The notes under the pieces are model-generated. The model had not been told where the DNA came from, ran no database searches, and saw only the letters and a list, made by a program, of their open reading frames with translations. Shown here piece by piece: positions 1-8,388 of a stretch of 64,000 nucleotides of DNA. A program made the position numbers and the translations under genes. This stretch comes from Caminibacter pacificus (GTDB taxonomy: Bacteria; Campylobacterota; Campylobacteria; Campylobacterales; Nautiliaceae), in assembly GCF_003752135.1 (NCBI RefSeq), contig NZ_RJVK01000002.1:124001-188000 (forward strand), written 5' to 3'. Within the stretch, counting starts at the first letter, position 1. Each line of letters opens with the position of its first letter.

Positions 1-454
1 TCTTCATTTCGCCGCTCATGCTTTTATGAAACCGGGTCTTTTTATAAGCTCACAGATTTTAGAACAAAACAAAAAATATATATTCAAAGGCACATTGAAA
101 AATCTCAATAAATTTGCCGCTTTTATGATTGGTGCTATGTTTTTAGGGGTGATTTCCCTTCCTCCAAGCCCTATGTTTTTCAGTGAAATATACGGATTTA
201 AAGCGATGATTGACATTGCAAAAGATTCAAATTATTTCTTTTTAATGATTGGAGCCGTTTTTATTCTTTTAATACTCCTTAGCATTATATTTTACAGATT
301 CGTTCATATTTATCAGGATATGCAATACATTGGAGATGAAAAAGAAAAAACAGTTTATAAAAGCGAAATGATTGCGATTCTAATTCTTTTTATTTCAACC
401 GCCTTGCTTTTACTTCCACAAAGTTTTGATTTTATTGAAGGGATTATGAAATGA
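1..454 (+). CDS. Proton-pumping membrane subunit, HyfF/NuoM-like (partial, 5' end outside window)
   Basis: This is the C-terminal part of an antiporter-like membrane subunit of the NuoL/M/N and HyfF family, which carries ion translocation in complex I and group 4 hydrogenases. The reading frame is open from the first bases of the window. It reads LHFAAHAFMKPGLF, the conserved 'H..NHA..K..LF' region of the family, so the ATG at 26 is internal. Later come the GVISLPPSPMFFSE motif and two hydrophobic segments. The stop overlaps the start of the next gene (451-454), so the genes are translationally coupled. The subtype (HyfF rather than NuoM or MrpD) is inferred from the neighbours. Confidence 0.85.
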   Translation, partial: LHFAAHAFMKPGLFISSQILEQNKKYIFKGTLKNLNKFAAFMIGAMFLGVISLPPSPMFFSEIYGFKAMIDIAKDSNYFFLMIGAVFILLILLSIIFYRFVHIYQDMQYIGDEKEKTVYKSEMIAILILFISTALLLLPQSFDFIEGIMK

Positions 455-1815
455 GATTAATTGCCAGATTTGCACTTGATAAGTTAGATAACTTTGAAAT
501 AATTGATGTTTATGACAATAAAATCGAACGCCAAAGCGTAGATAAAAAAAATCCGACAGTTAAATCACTTATGCCAAAATACCCCTCAGCCATTTGGATG
601 GAGAGAAAAATAAGAGATGAGTTCGGAATAGAATTTGAAGGGGCGTTTGACAATAGACCTCTTGTAAAACACGAAAGATTTCCAAAACACATCTATCCTT
701 TAAGAAAAGATTTTAATAAAAAAGAGATTGATTTCACGGTATTCACTCCTTACAAATACGAAGAAATCGAAGGAGATAACGTCTTTGTAGTACCTGTGGG
801 ACCAATTCATGCAGGAATTATAGAACCAGGACATTTTCAGTTTTCCCAAGCAGGTGAAGAGATACTTCATCTTGAAGTTAGGCACTATTACAAGTACCGC
901 GGAATTGAAAAAATGGTTGAAAACAAAATTCCTCAAGAAATCAAAAAAATAGTTGAAAGAATCAGCGGAAATGAAAGCATTGCCTATCAAATTGCCTTTA
1001 TGGATATTTTAGCTCAAGCAAGCGAAAGTGAAATTCCGAATTCCCTTAAACAAAAATATTTTACTCTTCTTGAACTTGAAAGAATTATTCATCACTTAAC
1101 TGATTTAGGGTTTATACCAAATGACGCGGGATTTGGTGCTGCACTTGCATTTATGAGCAAATTAGCAGAAGATGCAAGAAGAGTTATGGCAAAAATCACG
1201 GGACACAGATTCGGATTCGGGGCGATAAAAGAGGAAGTTGAAATTGACTATCAAGAACTTACCAAATTTATAGATTATTTAAAAAAAGAAGTTGAGTTTT
1301 TTGAAGACTGGATAAACGTTATTGCAAGTTTATGGGACAGATTTAATACCACAGGGGCTTTAAGCAGACAAAAGGCTGTAAAATATGGAGTTGTGGGTGT
1401 GGCGGCGAGAGCCAGCGGAATTGAAATTGATGTGAGAAACAATCTTTTTTATAAAAACTTCGGATATAAAATGCAGCTTGGAAATAAAGGCGAAGTATCG
1501 GATAGATTTAGAGTAAGAATAAAAGAAGTTTTAAATTCAATTGAAATGATAAAAAATTTCAAAACCGATAAAAAAGAAAAACTGATACTTAATAACTTTA
1601 AAGACGGAGAATATATGAGTTTTGTAGAAAGCTCTATCGGTGAGCTTTTTATGTATATGAAAATTAAAGAAGGTATAGTCGACAGATTTTACGTACGTGA
1701 CCCGTCACACATAAATTGGCAGGCGTTTCACACTACAATTTACAAAGATATTATTGCCGATTTTCCGCTTATTAATAAAAGTTTTGATTTAAGTTATGCC
1801 GGAAACGATTTATAA
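451..1815 (+). CDS. NuoC-NuoD fusion / group 4 hydrogenase large-subunit homologue without any cysteine
   Basis: The 454-residue protein joins a NuoC-like N-terminal domain (about 1-95, with the REF.I.FEG and PLRKDF regions) to a NuoD/hydrogenase large-subunit domain (about 120-454), as in HycE and HyfG. NiFe hydrogenases bind the metal through RxCGxC and DPCxxC. Here the equivalents are R170-I-S-G-N-E and D417-P-S-H-I-N, and the whole protein contains no cysteine. It therefore cannot hold a NiFe centre of the known type. The family is known to include such cysteine-less members (Ehr complexes, and NuoD itself). A role in coupling electron transfer to ion pumping is likely, but the electron donor and acceptor are unknown. 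Confidence 0.88.
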   Translation: MRLIARFALDKLDNFEIIDVYDNKIERQSVDKKNPTVKSLMPKYPSAIWMERKIRDEFGIEFEGAFDNRPLVKHERFPKHIYPLRKDFNKKEIDFTVFTPYKYEEIEGDNVFVVPVGPIHAGIIEPGHFQFSQAGEEILHLEVRHYYKYRGIEKMVENKIPQEIKKIVERISGNESIAYQIAFMDILAQASESEIPNSLKQKYFTLLELERIIHHLTDLGFIPNDAGFGAALAFMSKLAEDARRVMAKITGHRFGFGAIKEEVEIDYQELTKFIDYLKKEVEFFEDWINVIASLWDRFNTTGALSRQKAVKYGVVGVAARASGIEIDVRNNLFYKNFGYKMQLGNKGEVSDRFRVRIKEVLNSIEMIKNFKTDKKEKLILNNFKDGEYMSFVESSIGELFMYMKIKEGIVDRFYVRDPSHINWQAFHTTIYKDIIADFPLINKSFDLSYAGNDL

Positions 1816-1824
1816 AGGATAAAA

Positions 1825-2325
1825 ATGCTAAGATTCTGGGAAAAAAGAATTAAAACGGGAATAGTTACCGAAAATTTAGAATTTGACAAAGAACTTGAAG
1901 AAATTAAAAAACAGATAAAAAACAAAATCAAAAAACATTTTGCCGGAAGCCTGGCAATAAGAATGGTTGACAGCGGAAGCTGTAACGCATGCGAAGCCGA
2001 ATGTAACGCTTTAAGCAACCCCTATTATGACTTAGAGAGACTCGGAATACATTTTGTAGCAAGCCCGAGACACGCGGACGTTATGTTTTTAAGCGGTGTA
2101 ATGACTATGAATATGTACCATCATGCAATAGACTGTTATAACCAGATGCCATCACCTAAATGGGTAATTGCAATAGGAGATTGTGTAAAAGATTTGGGAG
2201 TTTTTGAAAAAACATACGCAATAAAAGGAAATGATTTAAACATAGACTATTTTATCCCGGGTTGTCCTCCAAACCCGAAAGATATAATAAAAGGACTTTT
2301 GGAATTTTTAAAAACTTTTGAATAA
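1825..2325 (+). CDS. NuoB / group 4 hydrogenase small-subunit homologue (HyfI/HycG-like)
   Basis: This 166-residue iron-sulfur subunit sits 9 bases after the large subunit. The proximal 4Fe-4S ligands look complete: C53 and C56 in GSCNACEAEC, C120 in AIGDC, and C147 in IPGCPP. The stretch ERLGIHFVASPRHADV is typical of the group 4 hydrogenase/NuoB family. The cluster thus survives although its large-subunit partner has lost the NiFe ligands, as expected for an Ehr-type or complex I-like module. No HyfH/NuoI-type ferredoxin gene lies between the large and small subunits, unlike the E. coli hyf order. This is the last gene of the operon; the next gene is convergent and begins 2 bases away. Confidence 0.87.
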   Translation: MLRFWEKRIKTGIVTENLEFDKELEEIKKQIKNKIKKHFAGSLAIRMVDSGSCNACEAECNALSNPYYDLERLGIHFVASPRHADVMFLSGVMTMNMYHHAIDCYNQMPSPKWVIAIGDCVKDLGVFEKTYAIKGNDLNIDYFIPGCPPNPKDIIKGLLEFLKTFE

Positions 2326-2757: not shown

Positions 2758-4680
2758 TTAAATTAAAACCGGTTTTGAAAAATAATACCCTTGCGAATAA
2801 TCAATTCCAAGCTCACATACTTTTTGAAAAATCTCCTCCGTTTCTACAAATTCCGCAATCGTTTTTATATTGTTTGAATTTGCAAAATCCACAATAGCTT
2901 TTACGATACTTTGAGAAAAACTATCGTTTGGTAAATCCCTAATAAGTGTTCCGTCAATTTTTAGAAAATCGGGTTGATATTTTTTGAGCCTGATAAAATT
3001 CGAATATCCGGTACCGAAATCGTCAATAGCGATTTTAACGCCTAATGATTTTATTTTTTTAATAAATTCTTCAAGTTCTTGAGAACTTCTTGAATTCGCA
3101 TCTTCTAATAACTCGAAAGTCACTCTGCTTGCGATATCAGGATTTTCCTGAAGTAATTTATAAATATAATTTCTTGTAGACGCTTTTTCTATATCTATCT
3201 CCGAAATATTTATACTTAGCTCTTTTAATTTTTTTAGTTTTTCAAAGCTTATATTCAAAACTTCATACGTAATTCTTGAATAAAAACTTCCTTTTTTTGC
3301 AATATCCAAAAATACCGCCGGGACTATATAGTTTCCGTCTTTATGGATTCTCACAAGCGTTTCGTATTTTTCTATTTTTTTAGTTTTATTATTGATTATC
3401 GGTTGATATACGCACATAAAAAGTTTTTTATCAAGTGCCTCTTTTATCAAATGCAAAACCTCAAGATTTTGTTTTGAGACTTTTTTCATTTGTTCTTTTA
3501 GATTTGTTGCGATTATAAAACTACGATGATCTTTCAATATTTTTCTTATTCCAAGACGCGCGTTTTCATAAGCGTCTTTTCCAATAGCGACACTAATCAA
3601 AATAGATATATCATACTCCAACCCTTGAATATTAATAGTAGAGTTATTAATATTTTTTTGATATTCTCTTAATTCTTTAATAACTTTCCCAAAATCGTAA
3701 TTTTCAAGTTCACCTGCTATTGCAAACTCTCCGTTATCTAAGTAAAAAATTTTTTTAAAACATTTCGGCATACTACTTTTTAATATTTCTTCGAATTTTT
3801 TCTCAAGTCTTTCGGTGAATTCCTCACCAAAAAGGCTTCTTAAATTTTCAAAATTTTCAATATAAATTTCAGCCACTAAAGGATTTTGATGAGTATTTAT
3901 ATAATCGAGCAAAAGTCTTCTTGGTTTCATCATATCGTCAATATCATATGCGAGCATAATATACTCTTTTAGCTCGTCATTTTCATAAAAAGGTTTAATA
4001 ATCGCATTTAGATATTTTATTTCATCTCTTTTCGTAAATACTTTTAAAATTCCGTTAAAAATCACATGTTCTTTTAACGATTCAAAATTAACATTTCCAA
4101 AAAATATACTTTCAAAATTTTTATTTTGAATTTCTACGAACTCATATCCCAAAATATTTAAAAGAGCTTGATTAGCATAAGTGATTTTGTGATTTTTGTC
4201 TATTTTACAAACAAGTGAAGATTTATCGACTATATCCTGATACTGCTTTAATAACGAATAATATTTTTTTGCATTTGTTTTATTAACATAATCTTTTATA
4301 ATTTTTTCAAGAACGGAAATAATCTGCTCTAAATCAATAGGTTTCAAAATAAAGCCGTCAACTCCGATTTTTATTGCATCTAAAAAATATTCGGTTTCGT
4401 TATAAGCCGTTACGACGATTGTATAAACGTTATCGTCAATTTTTTTTATCTCTCTTAACATATCAAGCCCGTTCATTTTAGGCATATTAATATCAGTAAT
4501 AACCAAATCGAATTTTTCACTTTTAAATTTTTGAAGTCCTTCTTCTCCGTTTGTCGCCGTTTTCAGGTTTATAAAAAATCTTTTTAACAAGTTCCCTATC
4601 GTATTTCGAGCCTCTTCGTTATCTTCTACGAAAAGTACTTTTAACTGTTTCGTTTTTTCGATTATTTTCTCAAAACTCAT
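2758..4680 (-). CDS. Response regulator with REC-PAS-degenerate GGDEF-EAL domains (probable c-di-GMP phosphodiesterase)
   Basis: This 640-residue regulator has a receiver domain (1-125: acidic pair E19/D20, phospho-acceptor D63 in DINMPKMNG, Lys in LKPID), a PAS-like segment (about 150-245), a GGDEF-like segment, and an EAL domain (about 400-640). The GGDEF site reads DNGEFA, so diguanylate cyclase activity is improbable. The EAL domain keeps E(T)LVR, IDDFGTGYSN, LKIDGTLI, AEFVET and GYYFSKP, so cyclic-di-GMP hydrolysis is likely. Its ATG overlaps the stop of the kinase gene (4677-4680), making the kinase the probable phosphate donor. Confidence 0.88.
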   Translation of the reverse strand: MSFEKIIEKTKQLKVLFVEDNEEARNTIGNLLKRFFINLKTATNGEEGLQKFKSEKFDLVITDINMPKMNGLDMLREIKKIDDNVYTIVVTAYNETEYFLDAIKIGVDGFILKPIDLEQIISVLEKIIKDYVNKTNAKKYYSLLKQYQDIVDKSSLVCKIDKNHKITYANQALLNILGYEFVEIQNKNFESIFFGNVNFESLKEHVIFNGILKVFTKRDEIKYLNAIIKPFYENDELKEYIMLAYDIDDMMKPRRLLLDYINTHQNPLVAEIYIENFENLRSLFGEEFTERLEKKFEEILKSSMPKCFKKIFYLDNGEFAIAGELENYDFGKVIKELREYQKNINNSTINIQGLEYDISILISVAIGKDAYENARLGIRKILKDHRSFIIATNLKEQMKKVSKQNLEVLHLIKEALDKKLFMCVYQPIINNKTKKIEKYETLVRIHKDGNYIVPAVFLDIAKKGSFYSRITYEVLNISFEKLKKLKELSINISEIDIEKASTRNYIYKLLQENPDIASRVTFELLEDANSRSSQELEEFIKKIKSLGVKIAIDDFGTGYSNFIRLKKYQPDFLKIDGTLIRDLPNDSFSQSIVKAIVDFANSNNIKTIAEFVETEEIFQKVCELGIDYSQGYYFSKPVLI

Positions 4681-6137
4681 TTTGCATCCTTACTCAAAAC
4701 GATCCTAAATACCGCTCCCTCTTCATCATTATATTGCAAAATTTCTCCTCCTAACCTCTGCTCCACAATATTTTTACTCATATACAACCCTAATCCGGTA
4801 CCGTTTTTTTCATTTTTAGTCGTAAAGTAAGGCTCGAAAATTTTATCTTTATATTTTTCATCAACCCCTCCTCCGTTATCTTTTACCTCAATTATACATT
4901 TATCGTCATTTTCAAAAATTTCTATAACGATTTTTGGATTATCAACTTTTCTCTCAATCAATATATCCTCGGCATTTTTTATAAGATTTAAAAGTACTTG
5001 TTTTAATTCATTAGGATAAGTTTTTATCTTTTGTTTACATTTTAAATGATTTTTAATTTTTATATTTTTATTTTTTAGAGAAGAAGAAGCTATGTTTAAA
5101 ACTTCTTGCAATATTTCATCAAAATCCACTTCTCTTTTTTCATTATCTTTTCTATAAAATTTTCTAAAATCATCTATAGTGGAACTCAAATGTTTTATCA
5201 TTTTTTTTATAGTTTCAAGATTTCTTTTAGTTTTTTGAGGATTATTTTCGTTTAGCATCATATCCATTTCCATATCCGCTACAACCCCACCGATTACGTT
5301 TAACGGCTGTCTCCATTGATGAGCAATCATACTAAGAAGTTCACCCATTAAAGCAAGACGAGATTGCATAATGAGCTGTCTGTCTTTTTCTCTACTTTTT
5401 TCGACCTCTTCTTTTACTCTGCTCTCCAATGTTTTGTTCAGTTCTTTCAATCTATCCAAAAGTTTTTGCATTTTTTTCTGACGTGAGATATCATAAAATA
5501 AGAAAATAGAAAGTATTACTACAGAAAGCAACAACACTGAAATAAATAAAAACAAAGATTTTTTCAAAATTATCAAATTACTATCGATATAAGAAAGAGG
5601 TTCCGTAGAGAAATCTATTACGATTAAATAACTGACTTTAGAATCATTATCCAATACAGGATATACATAAGTAGTCCAAACACCTTTGATATCTTGTTTA
5701 TAATAGATAGGTTTTTTCGTTTTTATCGCTTTTAACCACAAATCTTTTCTAGTCGGTTCAAATCTTTCATTAAAATCAAACCTATCTTTAGGATTAAGGC
5801 TCCCATCTCCAATAACTCTAAAAAATTTACCGTCATAATAAGTTAAAAATACGTTTTTAAAATCGCTTGTAATATATGTACTCAAATACAAATCTAACTC
5901 GCTTCTTAATTTCGGTTGTTTTTCCAATACTACTTTTATATTTCCATATTTTAGCAAAATATATCTTTCAATGTTTCTTGAAAAACTCTTTACTTCTTTT
6001 AATAAGAAATCAAATGTATCTTCCGATATACGTTTTTCTACATTTTTAAAAGTAATCCATATTACCATACTAAACAAAAACATTACAATAATCAAAAACA
6101 CTAAGAAAAAAACGCTTTTTGACTGTTTTGAATTCAT
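4677..6137 (-). CDS. Membrane sensor histidine kinase
   Basis: The 486-residue kinase has two transmembrane segments (about 8-30 and 193-215) that enclose a periplasmic sensor domain of about 160 residues, probably of Cache/PAS fold. A coiled coil (218-260) leads to the H-box MIAHQWRQPLN with H273. An ATPase domain follows with LLNLIKNAEDI (N-box), DNGGG (G1), FTTKN and GTGLGLYMSK (G2). The HQWRQPLN variant is common in Campylobacterota kinases. The gene overlaps both neighbours by 4 bases (ATGA type), which ties it to the downstream REC-EAL regulator and the upstream periplasmic protein. Confidence 0.9.
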   Translation of the reverse strand: MNSKQSKSVFFLVFLIIVMFLFSMVIWITFKNVEKRISEDTFDFLLKEVKSFSRNIERYILLKYGNIKVVLEKQPKLRSELDLYLSTYITSDFKNVFLTYYDGKFFRVIGDGSLNPKDRFDFNERFEPTRKDLWLKAIKTKKPIYYKQDIKGVWTTYVYPVLDNDSKVSYLIVIDFSTEPLSYIDSNLIILKKSLFLFISVLLLSVVILSIFLFYDISRQKKMQKLLDRLKELNKTLESRVKEEVEKSREKDRQLIMQSRLALMGELLSMIAHQWRQPLNVIGGVVADMEMDMMLNENNPQKTKRNLETIKKMIKHLSSTIDDFRKFYRKDNEKREVDFDEILQEVLNIASSSLKNKNIKIKNHLKCKQKIKTYPNELKQVLLNLIKNAEDILIERKVDNPKIVIEIFENDDKCIIEVKDNGGGVDEKYKDKIFEPYFTTKNEKNGTGLGLYMSKNIVEQRLGGEILQYNDEEGAVFRIVLSKDAK

Positions 6138-6520
6138 TCTAAAAAGTCCTCAAATTCTTTTGAAATATATAAATGATATTTTTCCAGTTCTTTTTTTCTA
6201 AGTCTTAACTGAGGTCTTCCTTTTCTCCAATAAAAAGCGCCTATTGCATTTTTATTGTTTTTAAATTTATAATAATCGAGTAAAAATCTAGGTTTAGTAC
6301 AATTTTTATCTACATCCCCTATAATTACATCAGCTTTTTTACAGCTTTTCACCACTATCAATACTCTAGAATTGGCATTTTTTATATCCGGATTGTTTGT
6401 AAGCACATAAACTACCGGTTTTTGAAAAAGAGTTGAAAATAATTTTTCAAAAAGTTCTATTTTAGCCGATGCGAATAACAACACTACTGAAAAAAACAAT
6501 AAAATTATTACTTTTTTCAA
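6134..6520 (-). CDS. Small periplasmic protein of unknown function in the sensing operon
   Basis: I do not recognise this 128-residue protein with confidence. It has an N-terminal signal peptide (hydrophobic 4-17, ending near ASA) and two cysteines (in KSCKKADV and DKNCTK) that could form a disulfide. The C-terminal half, FYWRKGRPQLRLRKKELE followed by LYISKEFEDFL, faintly recalls the end of YfiR-type (DUF4154) periplasmic proteins, which control cyclic-di-GMP signalling; that resemblance is only by eye. It overlaps the receptor gene (6517-6520) and the kinase gene (6134-6137), so it may relay a signal from the outer membrane protein to the kinase sensor domain. Confidence 0.6.
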   Translation of the reverse strand: MKKVIILLFFSVVLLFASAKIELFEKLFSTLFQKPVVYVLTNNPDIKNANSRVLIVVKSCKKADVIIGDVDKNCTKPRFLLDYYKFKNNKNAIGAFYWRKGRPQLRLRKKELEKYHLYISKEFEDFLE

Positions 6521-8388
6521 AACATATACTCCACTGATAAAGTTATGCTTCTCTCAAGCAAAGGCGTAGTTATTACATCTCTTTCTTGTGTATTCATATC
6601 TATAGTTAAATAACCGTTTTCATAGCGTTTATTAAGAATATTTTGAGCTTTTAAAGAGATAGAAAAGTTATCGTTAACGTTATATTTAACTCCACCGTTT
6701 AAGTCGTAACCTCTTTTCGAAGAATCACCGAATTTTGAATATCTAAACACCAAACTTTCAAATAAATCGAATTTTTTTATTCTATGTGTGTTTAAAAAAA
6801 TTATTCTTATAATTTTCTTAATAGGAGCGTCTTCCAAAATCATATCGCTTGCATCAATTACAAAATCGTTAATAATATTGTAATTTTTGTGATATCTAAC
6901 ATTAAAAATTTTAAGTTTCATAGGTTCCGGAATACTTTGTAATCCTTCTTTCGTAAATAAAAGATAATTACTATGTTTAGCATACATATAAATACCTTCT
7001 ATATTACTGCTTGAATTTAATTGTCTTTTATATTTAAAAATAAAAACGTTAGTTTTTTGCGGTTCAATATTTCTACTATCACCTAAAAGAGTAGAAATAA
7101 GATATGGAGGAATACCGAATTCATAATGATAGAAAAACAGCTTAAAAACGTCATTTTTATCTAAAAGATACGTATTTCCTATTTTGTATTGTTTTAACTT
7201 CCTATCGTTAATATTGTCAGATTCATAAATCGAATACGCTGCTCCTAACGTTAAAATGGCATTTTTCAAATATTGATAATTATTTTCCATAAATGCAGTA
7301 TAAATATCCTGTCTTTTAACTCCTTCGTAATCGAAATAATAAGAATTTAATTTTATGGTAGGATAATCCATTCTTTTAAATCTAGCACTAACACCGGTTA
7401 CGAATTTATTTTTCGAAGTTGTTTTTTTATATACGAATTCCGTAGTATGAACTTTACCTATTCCTTTGATTAATACGTCATACAAAGGAATATTAAATTG
7501 TAAAGAATAAAAAACCGGGGTAGGACTTTCGGCAAAAACAGATTTATCGTTTGTATAATCCAAAGAGTATTTGAAAGTAAAGTTATCGTTAAATTTATGA
7601 TCTATACCAAAATGTAAATATTTAGTCCAAACCAACGACTTCTTAATATTTCCGTCTACACTCAATCCTAAAAAAGAGTGCTGTTTATAAAAAATCGTAC
7701 TTAAAAGATATCTGGTTTTTTCATTATAAACAGACAAAAGATAATGATAAGTAAGAGAATCTCTATTTAAAAGCGTATCTTTATAAGGAATCGTTTTATG
7801 TCCGATATAATCTCTGGAAAAATGAGTATAAACGTTATACTTTCCTGAGTTAGCAAAATCCACTACCTGGGAATTACTTTTAAACGTACCGTAACTCGTA
7901 GCAATTCTAGTACCTTCATCTCTTTTCGCGTCTTTAGAATAAAGTTTAATAATAATATACGCAGGTTCCGGACTTAATTCATACGTCGGAGACATATAAT
8001 AAATTTCGATATGATCTATAAAACTCAAATCAATTTTCGAATATAAAAACAAAGCATTATCGTATTTTGCGGTTGTTAGTTCTTGATTATCAAGAAAAAT
8101 TCTTACACCTACGGTATTATAGGGAATAAAATACGAATTCCACGGGTCGGTTATTCCATATCTGTTTTCTCCATATCCGATAATCGTATGTTTTAATACG
8201 TCAGAAAGATATTTTGCTTGCATCATATCAAGCTGATATCTCGTAATTACATAAGAAATCCCCGCACTTTCTTGCATAGTTTTTTTGGATAAATCTTCAC
8301 TCTTTTCTATTTTATTTAAAAGCATATTCAAATCACCTGCAAATAAAATAGAAAAGAAGAGGAGAAAAGAAAGTAATCTCATCGCCAT
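6517..8388 (-). CDS. TonB-dependent receptor-like outer membrane protein
   Basis: The 623-residue protein begins with a signal peptide (residues 3-17, cut near LFAG). A plug-like domain follows: AGISYVITRYQLDMMQA, SDVLKH, VRIFLDNQELTTA and FIDHIEIYY match the plug of TonB-dependent receptors. The rest is a beta-barrel of alternating strands ending in a terminal Phe (VEYMF), the usual BAM recognition end. I see no clear TonB box before the plug. With a histidine kinase and EAL regulator in the same operon, a sensing role rather than nutrient import is plausible. The ligand is unknown. The start overlaps the PEBP gene by 10 bases. Confidence 0.82.
   Translation of the reverse strand: MAMRLLSFLLFFSILFAGDLNMLLNKIEKSEDLSKKTMQESAGISYVITRYQLDMMQAKYLSDVLKHTIIGYGENRYGITDPWNSYFIPYNTVGVRIFLDNQELTTAKYDNALFLYSKIDLSFIDHIEIYYMSPTYELSPEPAYIIIKLYSKDAKRDEGTRIATSYGTFKSNSQVVDFANSGKYNVYTHFSRDYIGHKTIPYKDTLLNRDSLTYHYLLSVYNEKTRYLLSTIFYKQHSFLGLSVDGNIKKSLVWTKYLHFGIDHKFNDNFTFKYSLDYTNDKSVFAESPTPVFYSLQFNIPLYDVLIKGIGKVHTTEFVYKKTTSKNKFVTGVSARFKRMDYPTIKLNSYYFDYEGVKRQDIYTAFMENNYQYLKNAILTLGAAYSIYESDNINDRKLKQYKIGNTYLLDKNDVFKLFFYHYEFGIPPYLISTLLGDSRNIEPQKTNVFIFKYKRQLNSSSNIEGIYMYAKHSNYLLFTKEGLQSIPEPMKLKIFNVRYHKNYNIINDFVIDASDMILEDAPIKKIIRIIFLNTHRIKKFDLFESLVFRYSKFGDSSKRGYDLNGGVKYNVNDNFSISLKAQNILNKRYENGYLTIDMNTQERDVITTPLLERSITLSVEYMF

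What the first reader, a model, noticed from the sequence alone, without database searches (positions are those of the whole stretch)
451..2325. Hydrogenase-like complex whose large subunit has no cysteine at all
The HycE/HyfG-like subunit has S172 and E175 where the first NiFe cysteine pair should be, and S419 and N422 where the last pair should be, while the partner small subunit keeps its four 4Fe-4S cysteines. This is the pattern of Ehr complexes and complex I rather than a hydrogenase. In a hydrogen-using bacterium it may couple another redox reaction to ion pumping.
Basis: partly seen in the sequence, partly recalled or inferred. Interest (0 to 1): 0.6.

Follow-up and report, generated by a model that had tools for sequence, protein, structure and literature searches.

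The report
Nickel-free hydrogenase relative (Ehr complex)
This hydrothermal-vent bacterium carries a complete, well-conserved set of genes for a membrane protein complex that looks like a hydrogen-making enzyme but has lost every amino acid needed to hold the nickel-iron centre, so it belongs to the known but functionally unexplained "Ehr" family and the published label "Hyc hydrogenase" for the same genes in related vent bacteria appears to be wrong.

Summary
The core observation holds. The 454-aa large subunit (window 451-1815) has no cysteine, and its partner (1825-2325) keeps all four 4Fe-4S ligands. One detail is wrong: S419/N422 is not the last NiFe pair. Aligned with 13 active group 4 hydrogenases, the true positions are S448 and G451, at the C-terminus. 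S172/E175 is right.

Reading upstream completes a six-gene operon, HyfB-C-E-F-G-I-like, with no HyfA, HyfH, formate dehydrogenase or maturation protease. It is the Ehr (energy-converting hydrogenase-related) type. Orthologues occur in 29 of 397 Campylobacterota genomes, and the same six genes in soil Pseudomonadota and Rhodococcus. Across 44 Ehr sequences no ligand position is cysteine, while S172, G451, E125, N442 and K443 are invariant and pump residues are kept. dN/dS is 0.03-0.10, so it is not a decayed hydrogenase. In the tree Ehr is one clade, sister to HyfG/HycE. It is not complex I-like: both quinone-head residues are missing.

The same genes are published as an H2-evolving "Hyc" hydrogenase in Nautilia profundicola and Sulfurimonas autotrophica; the sequence contradicts that. 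Function remains inferred: an ion pump with one Fe-S cluster and an emptied cavity. It is a new member of a known kind.

The parts
2..454 (+). 3' part of the HyfF/NuoN-like antiporter subunit (EhrD-type; whole gene 459 aa at contig C2:123075-124454, begins upstream of the window)
   Evidence: pump residues E117, K204, H315, K319, E371 kept in 38-39 of 39 Ehr.
451..1815 (+). Large subunit (EhrL-type, NuoC-NuoD fusion), 454 aa, no Cys, C-terminus ends at SYAGNDL where processed hydrogenases end
   Evidence: (PF00329 + PF00346).
964..975 (+). S172-G173-N174-E175: position of the first NiFe CxxC pair
   Evidence: S172 44/44, G173 44/44, residue 175 variable (E35, S3, T3, D, N, A).
1792..1803 (+).
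   Evidence: C in 13/13 active hydrogenases, S 43/44 and G 44/44 in Ehr.
823..825 (+). E125, the Glu of the hydrogenase GPxHxxxxEP motif, kept; the preceding I124 stands where complex I has quinone-binding His38
1774..1779 (+). N442-K443, invariant in Ehr and absent from hydrogenases and complex I; next to the emptied site, candidate substrate residues
   Evidence: 44/44.
1825..2325 (+). Small subunit (EhrS-type, HyfI/NuoB-like), 166 aa, cluster ligands C53, C56, C120, C147; extra C60 in Campylobacterota
   Evidence: PF01058; four ligands in 39/39 Ehr.

Best explanation
The locus encodes a complete six-subunit Ehr complex (operon C2:119709-126325; gene order HyfB-, HyfC/NuoH-, HyfE-, HyfF-, HyfG/NuoCD-, HyfI/NuoB-like; only the last two and part of the fourth are in the window). 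SHOWN: all four Ni/Fe ligands are replaced across the whole family; one 4Fe-4S cluster site, the NuoH-like membrane anchor and two antiporter-type subunits with their charged pump residues are kept; there is no NuoI/HyfH-type electron wire, no NADH module and no formate dehydrogenase in the operon; selection is strongly purifying. INFERRED: it does not make or use H2. A soluble low-potential carrier (ferredoxin is the likeliest) docks directly on the small subunit, electrons pass its single cluster to a small molecule bound in the emptied NiFe cavity (lined by invariant S172, G173, E125, N442, K443, G451 and near-invariant S448), and that reaction is coupled through the NuoH-like subunit to ion transport by the two antiporter-like subunits; it may run in either direction. 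Rough odds: Ehr member 0.95; not a hydrogenase 0.95; redox-coupled ion pump 0.75; ferredoxin-type donor 0.45; a quinone as the other substrate 0.3.
For: Operon read outside the window; subunit families. Ligand positions never Cys in 44 Ehr rows, against 13/13 in active enzymes. EhrS ligands in 39/39. Pump residues E67, K146, K274, E329 of the HyfB-like and E117, K204, H315, K319, E371 of the HyfF-like subunit, and the NuoH-like acidic chain, near-invariant. dN/dS 0.03-0.10 in 11 of 12 gene comparisons with two close relatives. Six-gene synteny in Campylobacterota with no recurring partner and the same six genes in Burkholderia, Variovorax, Rhizobium, Rhodococcus and Methylocalor. Ehr one clade 100/100, HyfG/HycE its sister at 99/98. 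Papers describe Ehr as lacking the NiFe ligands with function unknown (PMC6349859; PMC10284858; PMC10432482).
Against: No electron donor or acceptor is identified; no partner gene recurs beside the operon. The formate dehydrogenase/NuoEF partner proposed for other Ehr (PMC6349859) finds no NuoF here; a formate dehydrogenase-like protein without an export signal exists on another contig (C3:42049) but is unlinked. The quinone-head residues of complex I are absent, which speaks against a complex-I-like quinone site. A 2026 Geobacter paper treats Ehr as nonfunctional (PMC13194489), though our dN/dS does not fit that here.
Confidence: 0.7

Rival explanations
1. A real H2-evolving group 4 (Hyc-type) NiFe hydrogenase, as annotated in Nautilia profundicola, Nautilia PV-1 and Sulfurimonas autotrophica, making H2 from protons or providing acid resistance.
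For: Closest functional relatives by sequence are HycE/HyfG; the membrane subunits score best to hydrogenase 4 models; published annotation.
Against: All four NiFe ligands are absent in every one of 44 family members; no HyfH/HyfA, no formate dehydrogenase and no maturation protease in the operon; the protein already ends where the protease would cut. The host has two other group 4 large subunits with both CxxC pairs intact.
Confidence: 0.02
2. A decayed, non-functional hydrogenase remnant.
For: Loss of the catalytic ligands; patchy presence (29 of 397 genomes of the phylum); a 2026 Geobacter paper argues relaxed selection there.
Against: dN/dS 0.03-0.10, complete ORFs in all six genes, kept cluster ligands and pump residues, the same substituted residues across phyla.
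Confidence: 0.03
3. A complex-I-like quinone oxidoreductase: ferredoxin (or another donor) to menaquinone, quinone bound in the former NiFe cavity.
For: Same architecture as complex I; the cavity is equivalent to the quinone pocket; D225 aligns with an Asp present in all three complex I reference sequences.
Against: The two residues that hold the quinone head in complex I (His38 and Tyr87 of Nqo4, from general knowledge) are I124 and G173 and invariant; only one cluster instead of a chain.
Confidence: 0.3
4. A formate dehydrogenase-Ehr complex with subunits encoded elsewhere, as proposed for Margulis- and Saganbacteria (PMC6349859).
For: A formate dehydrogenase-like protein without an export signal is encoded at C3:42049.
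Against: Unlinked; no NuoF-type link subunit (PF01512 absent); no formate dehydrogenase gene beside any of the Ehr operons whose annotation was available; no HycB/HyfA-type linker in the operon.
Confidence: 0.08

Closest known systems
Ehr (energy-converting hydrogenase-related) complexes, e.g. Geobacter, Nitrospira, ammonia-oxidising archaea; plasmid-borne six-gene operons of Burkholderia, Variovorax, Rhizobium, Rhodococcus
   Same: Six homologous genes, no NiFe ligands, four small-subunit cluster ligands, two antiporter-type subunits, family signature in EhrL.
   Different: Campylobacterota large subunit is about 50 aa shorter than the plasmid ones, usually has Glu at residue 175 where the others have mostly Ser or Thr, and its small subunit has an extra Cys60; 31-36% identity.
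Hydrogenase-4 / formate hydrogenlyase (HyfG, HycE; group 4a)
   Same: Sister clade; same HyfB/C/E/F/G/I gene kinds; kept Glu of GPxHxxxxEP, kept RASG.
   Different: All four Cys ligands lost; no HyfA, HyfD, HyfH, HyfJ, FdhF; no C-terminal extension to be cleaved.
Complex I (NuoCD / Nqo4)
   Same: NuoC-NuoD family by sequence, NuoB-like cluster subunit, NuoH-like anchor, antiporter subunits.
   Different: No quinone-head His/Tyr; no NuoI, NuoEFG, NuoA, NuoJ in the operon; CxxC spacing in the small subunit.
Mbx/Mbs of Pyrococcus furiosus (6u8y)
   Same: Hydrogenase-like respiratory complex without a full NiFe site.
   Different: Mbx keeps one Cys of each pair (RIC, DNC); Ehr keeps none.

Membership tests
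Ehr complex | Large subunit homologous to group 4 hydrogenases but lacking the CxxC NiFe ligands | tested here: met
   positions 172, 175, 448, 451 are S, E, S, G; no Cys in 44 rows.
Ehr complex | Operon of four membrane subunits plus large and small subunit, without NADH module | tested here: met
   subunit families; the gene names ehrABCDLS are from memory (Coppi 2005, not held).
Ehr complex | Mrp/antiporter-like subunits with pump residues | tested here: met
   (PF00361 twice).
Ehr complex | Small subunit keeps its 4Fe-4S ligands | tested here: met
   39/39.
Ehr complex | Falls in one clade with Ehr large subunits of other phyla | tested here: met
   100/100, ligand columns removed before tree building.
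Group 4a NiFe hydrogenase (Hyc/Hyf) | Two CxxC pairs binding Ni-Fe | tested here: not met
Group 4a NiFe hydrogenase (Hyc/Hyf) | HyfH/HyfA-type ferredoxin subunits, HycI-type protease, cleavable C-terminus | tested here: not met
   compare.
Group 4a NiFe hydrogenase (Hyc/Hyf) | H2 evolution activity | not testable with these tools
   Needs purified complex or mutant.
Complex I | Quinone-head His38 and Tyr87 (Nqo4 numbering) | tested here: not met
   I124 and G173, invariant in Ehr.
Complex I | Ferredoxin-type NuoI subunit and NuoEFG | tested here: not met
   none in the operon; no NuoF in the genome.

The most novel reading that the evidence does not exclude
The emptied NiFe cavity, with its conserved Ser172, Gly173, Glu125, Asn442, Lys443, Ser448 and Gly451, is an active site of its own for an unidentified small molecule, and Ehr is a third catalytic type of ion pump in the complex I superfamily (neither H2 nor quinone chemistry) that needs only one Fe-S cluster. 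It would then have been counted as a hydrogenase in vent bacteria for over fifteen years.
Probability: 0.25. Interest if true: 0.65.

Novelty: new member of a known kind. Interest (0 to 1): 0.35.

Why it matters
Hydrogen budgets of vent Campylobacterota are inferred from counts of hydrogenase operons. The six-gene operon seen here is counted as an H2-evolving 'Hyc' hydrogenase in N. profundicola (PMC2628731), Nautilia PV-1 (PMC10092268) and S. autotrophica, where acid resistance by H2 production was suggested (PMC4584964). The sequences say it cannot be a NiFe hydrogenase. S. autotrophica then has no group 4 hydrogenase at all: its genome holds only NuoD and this protein. What Ehr complexes do is an open question across many phyla, and relatives that can be grown in the laboratory (Cupriavidus, Rhizobium, Sulfurimonas) carry the same genes, so it is testable.

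Tried and rejected
Hydrogenase (no ligands); decayed remnant (dN/dS 0.03-0.10); second large subunit in the same operon supplying ligands (none). Search for a recurrent partner gene beside Campylobacterota Ehr: none. A seven-gene insert between L and S in one genome (L059) turned out to be a pyrophosphatase/cytochrome/two-component cassette seen in no other locus. An amino-acid permease between L and S in G358 is not recurrent. Formate dehydrogenase/NuoEF partner: no NuoF in the genome. AlphaFold2 of the large subunit with the two sequences allowed gave mean pLDDT 34.6 and was not used. A single-protein scan of genome contigs found only two near relatives, so named relatives came from plasmids. 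One dN/dS value (EhrC against L045, 1.30) is far out of line with the other eleven and is set aside as a probable alignment artefact, not recomputed. Marreiros et al. 2013 is not held and Coppi 2005 was not read, so Ehr definitions rest on later papers that cite them.

Full report
WHAT IS THERE. Window 451-1815 (+) is an intact 454-codon ORF with no Cys, and 1825-2325 (+) a 166-codon ORF with six Cys. The first is a NuoC-NuoD fusion (PF00329 and PF00346), the second NuoB/HyfI-like (PF01058). The window lies at C2:124001-188000 of a 1.86-Mb genome in 8 contigs. Reading upstream completes the operon C2:119709-126325: 619 aa HyfB-like, 306 aa HyfC/NuoH-like, 201 aa HyfE-like, 459 aa HyfF-like, the large and the small subunit. 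Divergent LysE-type transporter genes lie upstream and a convergent thioesterase gene downstream. There is no HyfA, HyfD, HyfH, HyfJ, formate dehydrogenase or protease gene, most of which accompany E. coli Hyf and a bona fide Rhodovastum operon.

CHECK OF THE MOTIFS. The last CxxC (SLDPCYSC) aligns with SFDLSYAG at the very C-terminus, so the replacing residues are S448 and G451. The conclusion survives the slip: in 44 Ehr rows from Campylobacterota, Pseudomonadota and Actinomycetota none of the four positions is ever Cys; S172, G173, G451, E125, N442 and K443 are invariant, S448 is 43/44, and residue 175 varies. The complete lack of Cys is a detail of 7 of 44 rows.

FAMILY. A single-protein search finds orthologues of 53-95% identity in 29 of 397 Campylobacterota genomes (15 of 68 genera), then a gap to about 30% for HyfG, Ech and NuoD. 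The six genes are kept in that order in nearly every locus long enough to judge, with no recurring neighbour of plausible partner function. In plasmid records the best relatives (31-36%) are operons with the same subunits in Burkholderia, Variovorax, Rhizobium, Rhodococcus and Methylocalor, mostly aerobic soil bacteria; in Rhodococcus the small-subunit gene comes first. All share GPIHAGIIEPGHF-, RxSG- and NKSxxLSYAGxDL-type motifs. A maximum-likelihood tree with the four ligand columns removed gives Ehr as one clade (100/100), with a Mycobacterium branderi and a Caballeronia protein at its base, and HyfG/HycE as sister (99/98). Holding all active hydrogenases together against Ehr plus Nuo is weakly rejected (p-AU 0.038), which favours loss of the NiFe site from a hydrogenase ancestor; sampling is thin and several branches are long.

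IT IS MAINTAINED. dN/dS against two close relatives is 0.03-0.10 in 11 of 12 gene comparisons; the twelfth is set aside as a probable artefact. The small subunit keeps its four cluster ligands in 39/39. The pump residues of both antiporter-like subunits and the acidic chain of the NuoH-like subunit are near-invariant.

HOW IT MIGHT WORK. The anatomy is a proton- or sodium-pumping arm, one Fe-S cluster and an emptied cavity. The residues that hold the quinone head in complex I (His38 and Tyr87 of Nqo4, from general knowledge) are I124 and G173, whereas the hydrogenase Glu of GPxHxxxxEP is kept as E125. So the pocket is derived from a hydrogenase rather than from complex I. With no NuoI-like subunit the electron wire is one cluster long, so a soluble carrier most likely docks on the small subunit directly (inference). 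The proposed formate dehydrogenase-Ehr link of PMC6349859 finds no NuoF here; a formate dehydrogenase-like protein without an export signal lies unlinked at C3:42049.

RELATION TO THE LITERATURE. Ehr complexes are known and described as of unknown function. The N. [quoted passage not shown] G013 has one contig of 1,676,444 bp, the published chromosome length, and exactly four PF00346 proteins: Nuo, Coo, Ech and this Ehr; gene order, strand and relative position also fit, so hyc is Ehr. Nautilia PV-1 'Hyc' spans a locus-tag range consistent with six genes. The Sulfurimonas review assigns S. autotrophica one group IV hydrogenase, Hyc, clustering with vent 'Hycs' and suggested to serve acid resistance; G161 has one contig of 2,153,198 bp, the published length, and only NuoD and Ehr. 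G292 and G080 match the lengths 2,562,277 and 1,877,931 in that paper's table, taken to be Sulfurovum NBC37-1 and Nitratiruptor SB155-2, and also carry Ehr. These identifications rest on genome length and gene content, not on the deposited locus tags.

VERDICT. A well-conserved Ehr complex: a new member of a known kind, useful mainly because it removes a supposed hydrogenase from several vent bacteria and offers a clean case for the open question of what Ehr does.

Noticed in passing
L009 10542-12197 (G000:C3:114544-116193), own complex I operon: The only complex I of this genome (NuoA,B,CD,H,I,J,K,L,M,N; no E,F,G) has a NuoCD whose active site reads ERICFMDN and SMHICQGDLDR: one Cys of each former NiFe pair, as in P. 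furiosus Mbx, and neither quinone-head residue of complex I. The HIC end is the same in 20 of 20 orthologues checked (Nautiliaceae and one other family) and the RIC motif in 17. It may not be an ordinary menaquinone reductase. G292, by length Sulfurovum NBC37-1, has both this type and a normal NuoD.
   Followed up: partly
L062 3233-19275 (G358:C27): One Campylobacterota genome carries two Ehr operons nested in each other: a second, divergent six-gene Ehr (31-45% identity) sits between the large and small subunit genes of the first, with an amino-acid permease.
   Followed up: partly
L059 11604-17010 (G055:C1): A cassette of pyrophosphatase, three c-type cytochrome proteins and a two-component system is inserted between the Ehr large and small subunit genes.
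   Followed up: partly
L078, L077, L083 (Burkholderia, Cupriavidus, Variovorax plasmids): A spermidine synthase-like gene recurs next to Ehr in all three betaproteobacteria and a YoaK-family gene in two of them; a possible functional link outside Campylobacterota.
   Followed up: partly
L010 4345-7821 (G000:C1): The Coo-type group 4 operon of this genome has a 1158-aa membrane subunit that reads as two antiporter-type modules in one protein (by eye).
   Followed up: no
L057 9756-12551 (G023): The reading frame of the large subunit stays open far upstream through the HyfF-like region (971-codon open frame). The part before the usual start reads as out-of-frame sequence, so it is probably not a real fusion.
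   Followed up: partly
L088 8794-10434 (Natrinema pellirubrum plasmid): A lone NuoCD-like gene without other complex subunits sits beside a methyltransferase and an amidohydrolase; similar haloarchaeal plasmid hits exist.
   Followed up: no
window 2758-8388, minus strand: A signalling cluster: a 640-aa protein that reads as a response regulator with a C-terminal EAL-type domain, a 486-aa histidine kinase-like protein, a 128-aa protein with a signal-like start and a 623-aa TonB-receptor-like protein (by eye).
   Followed up: no
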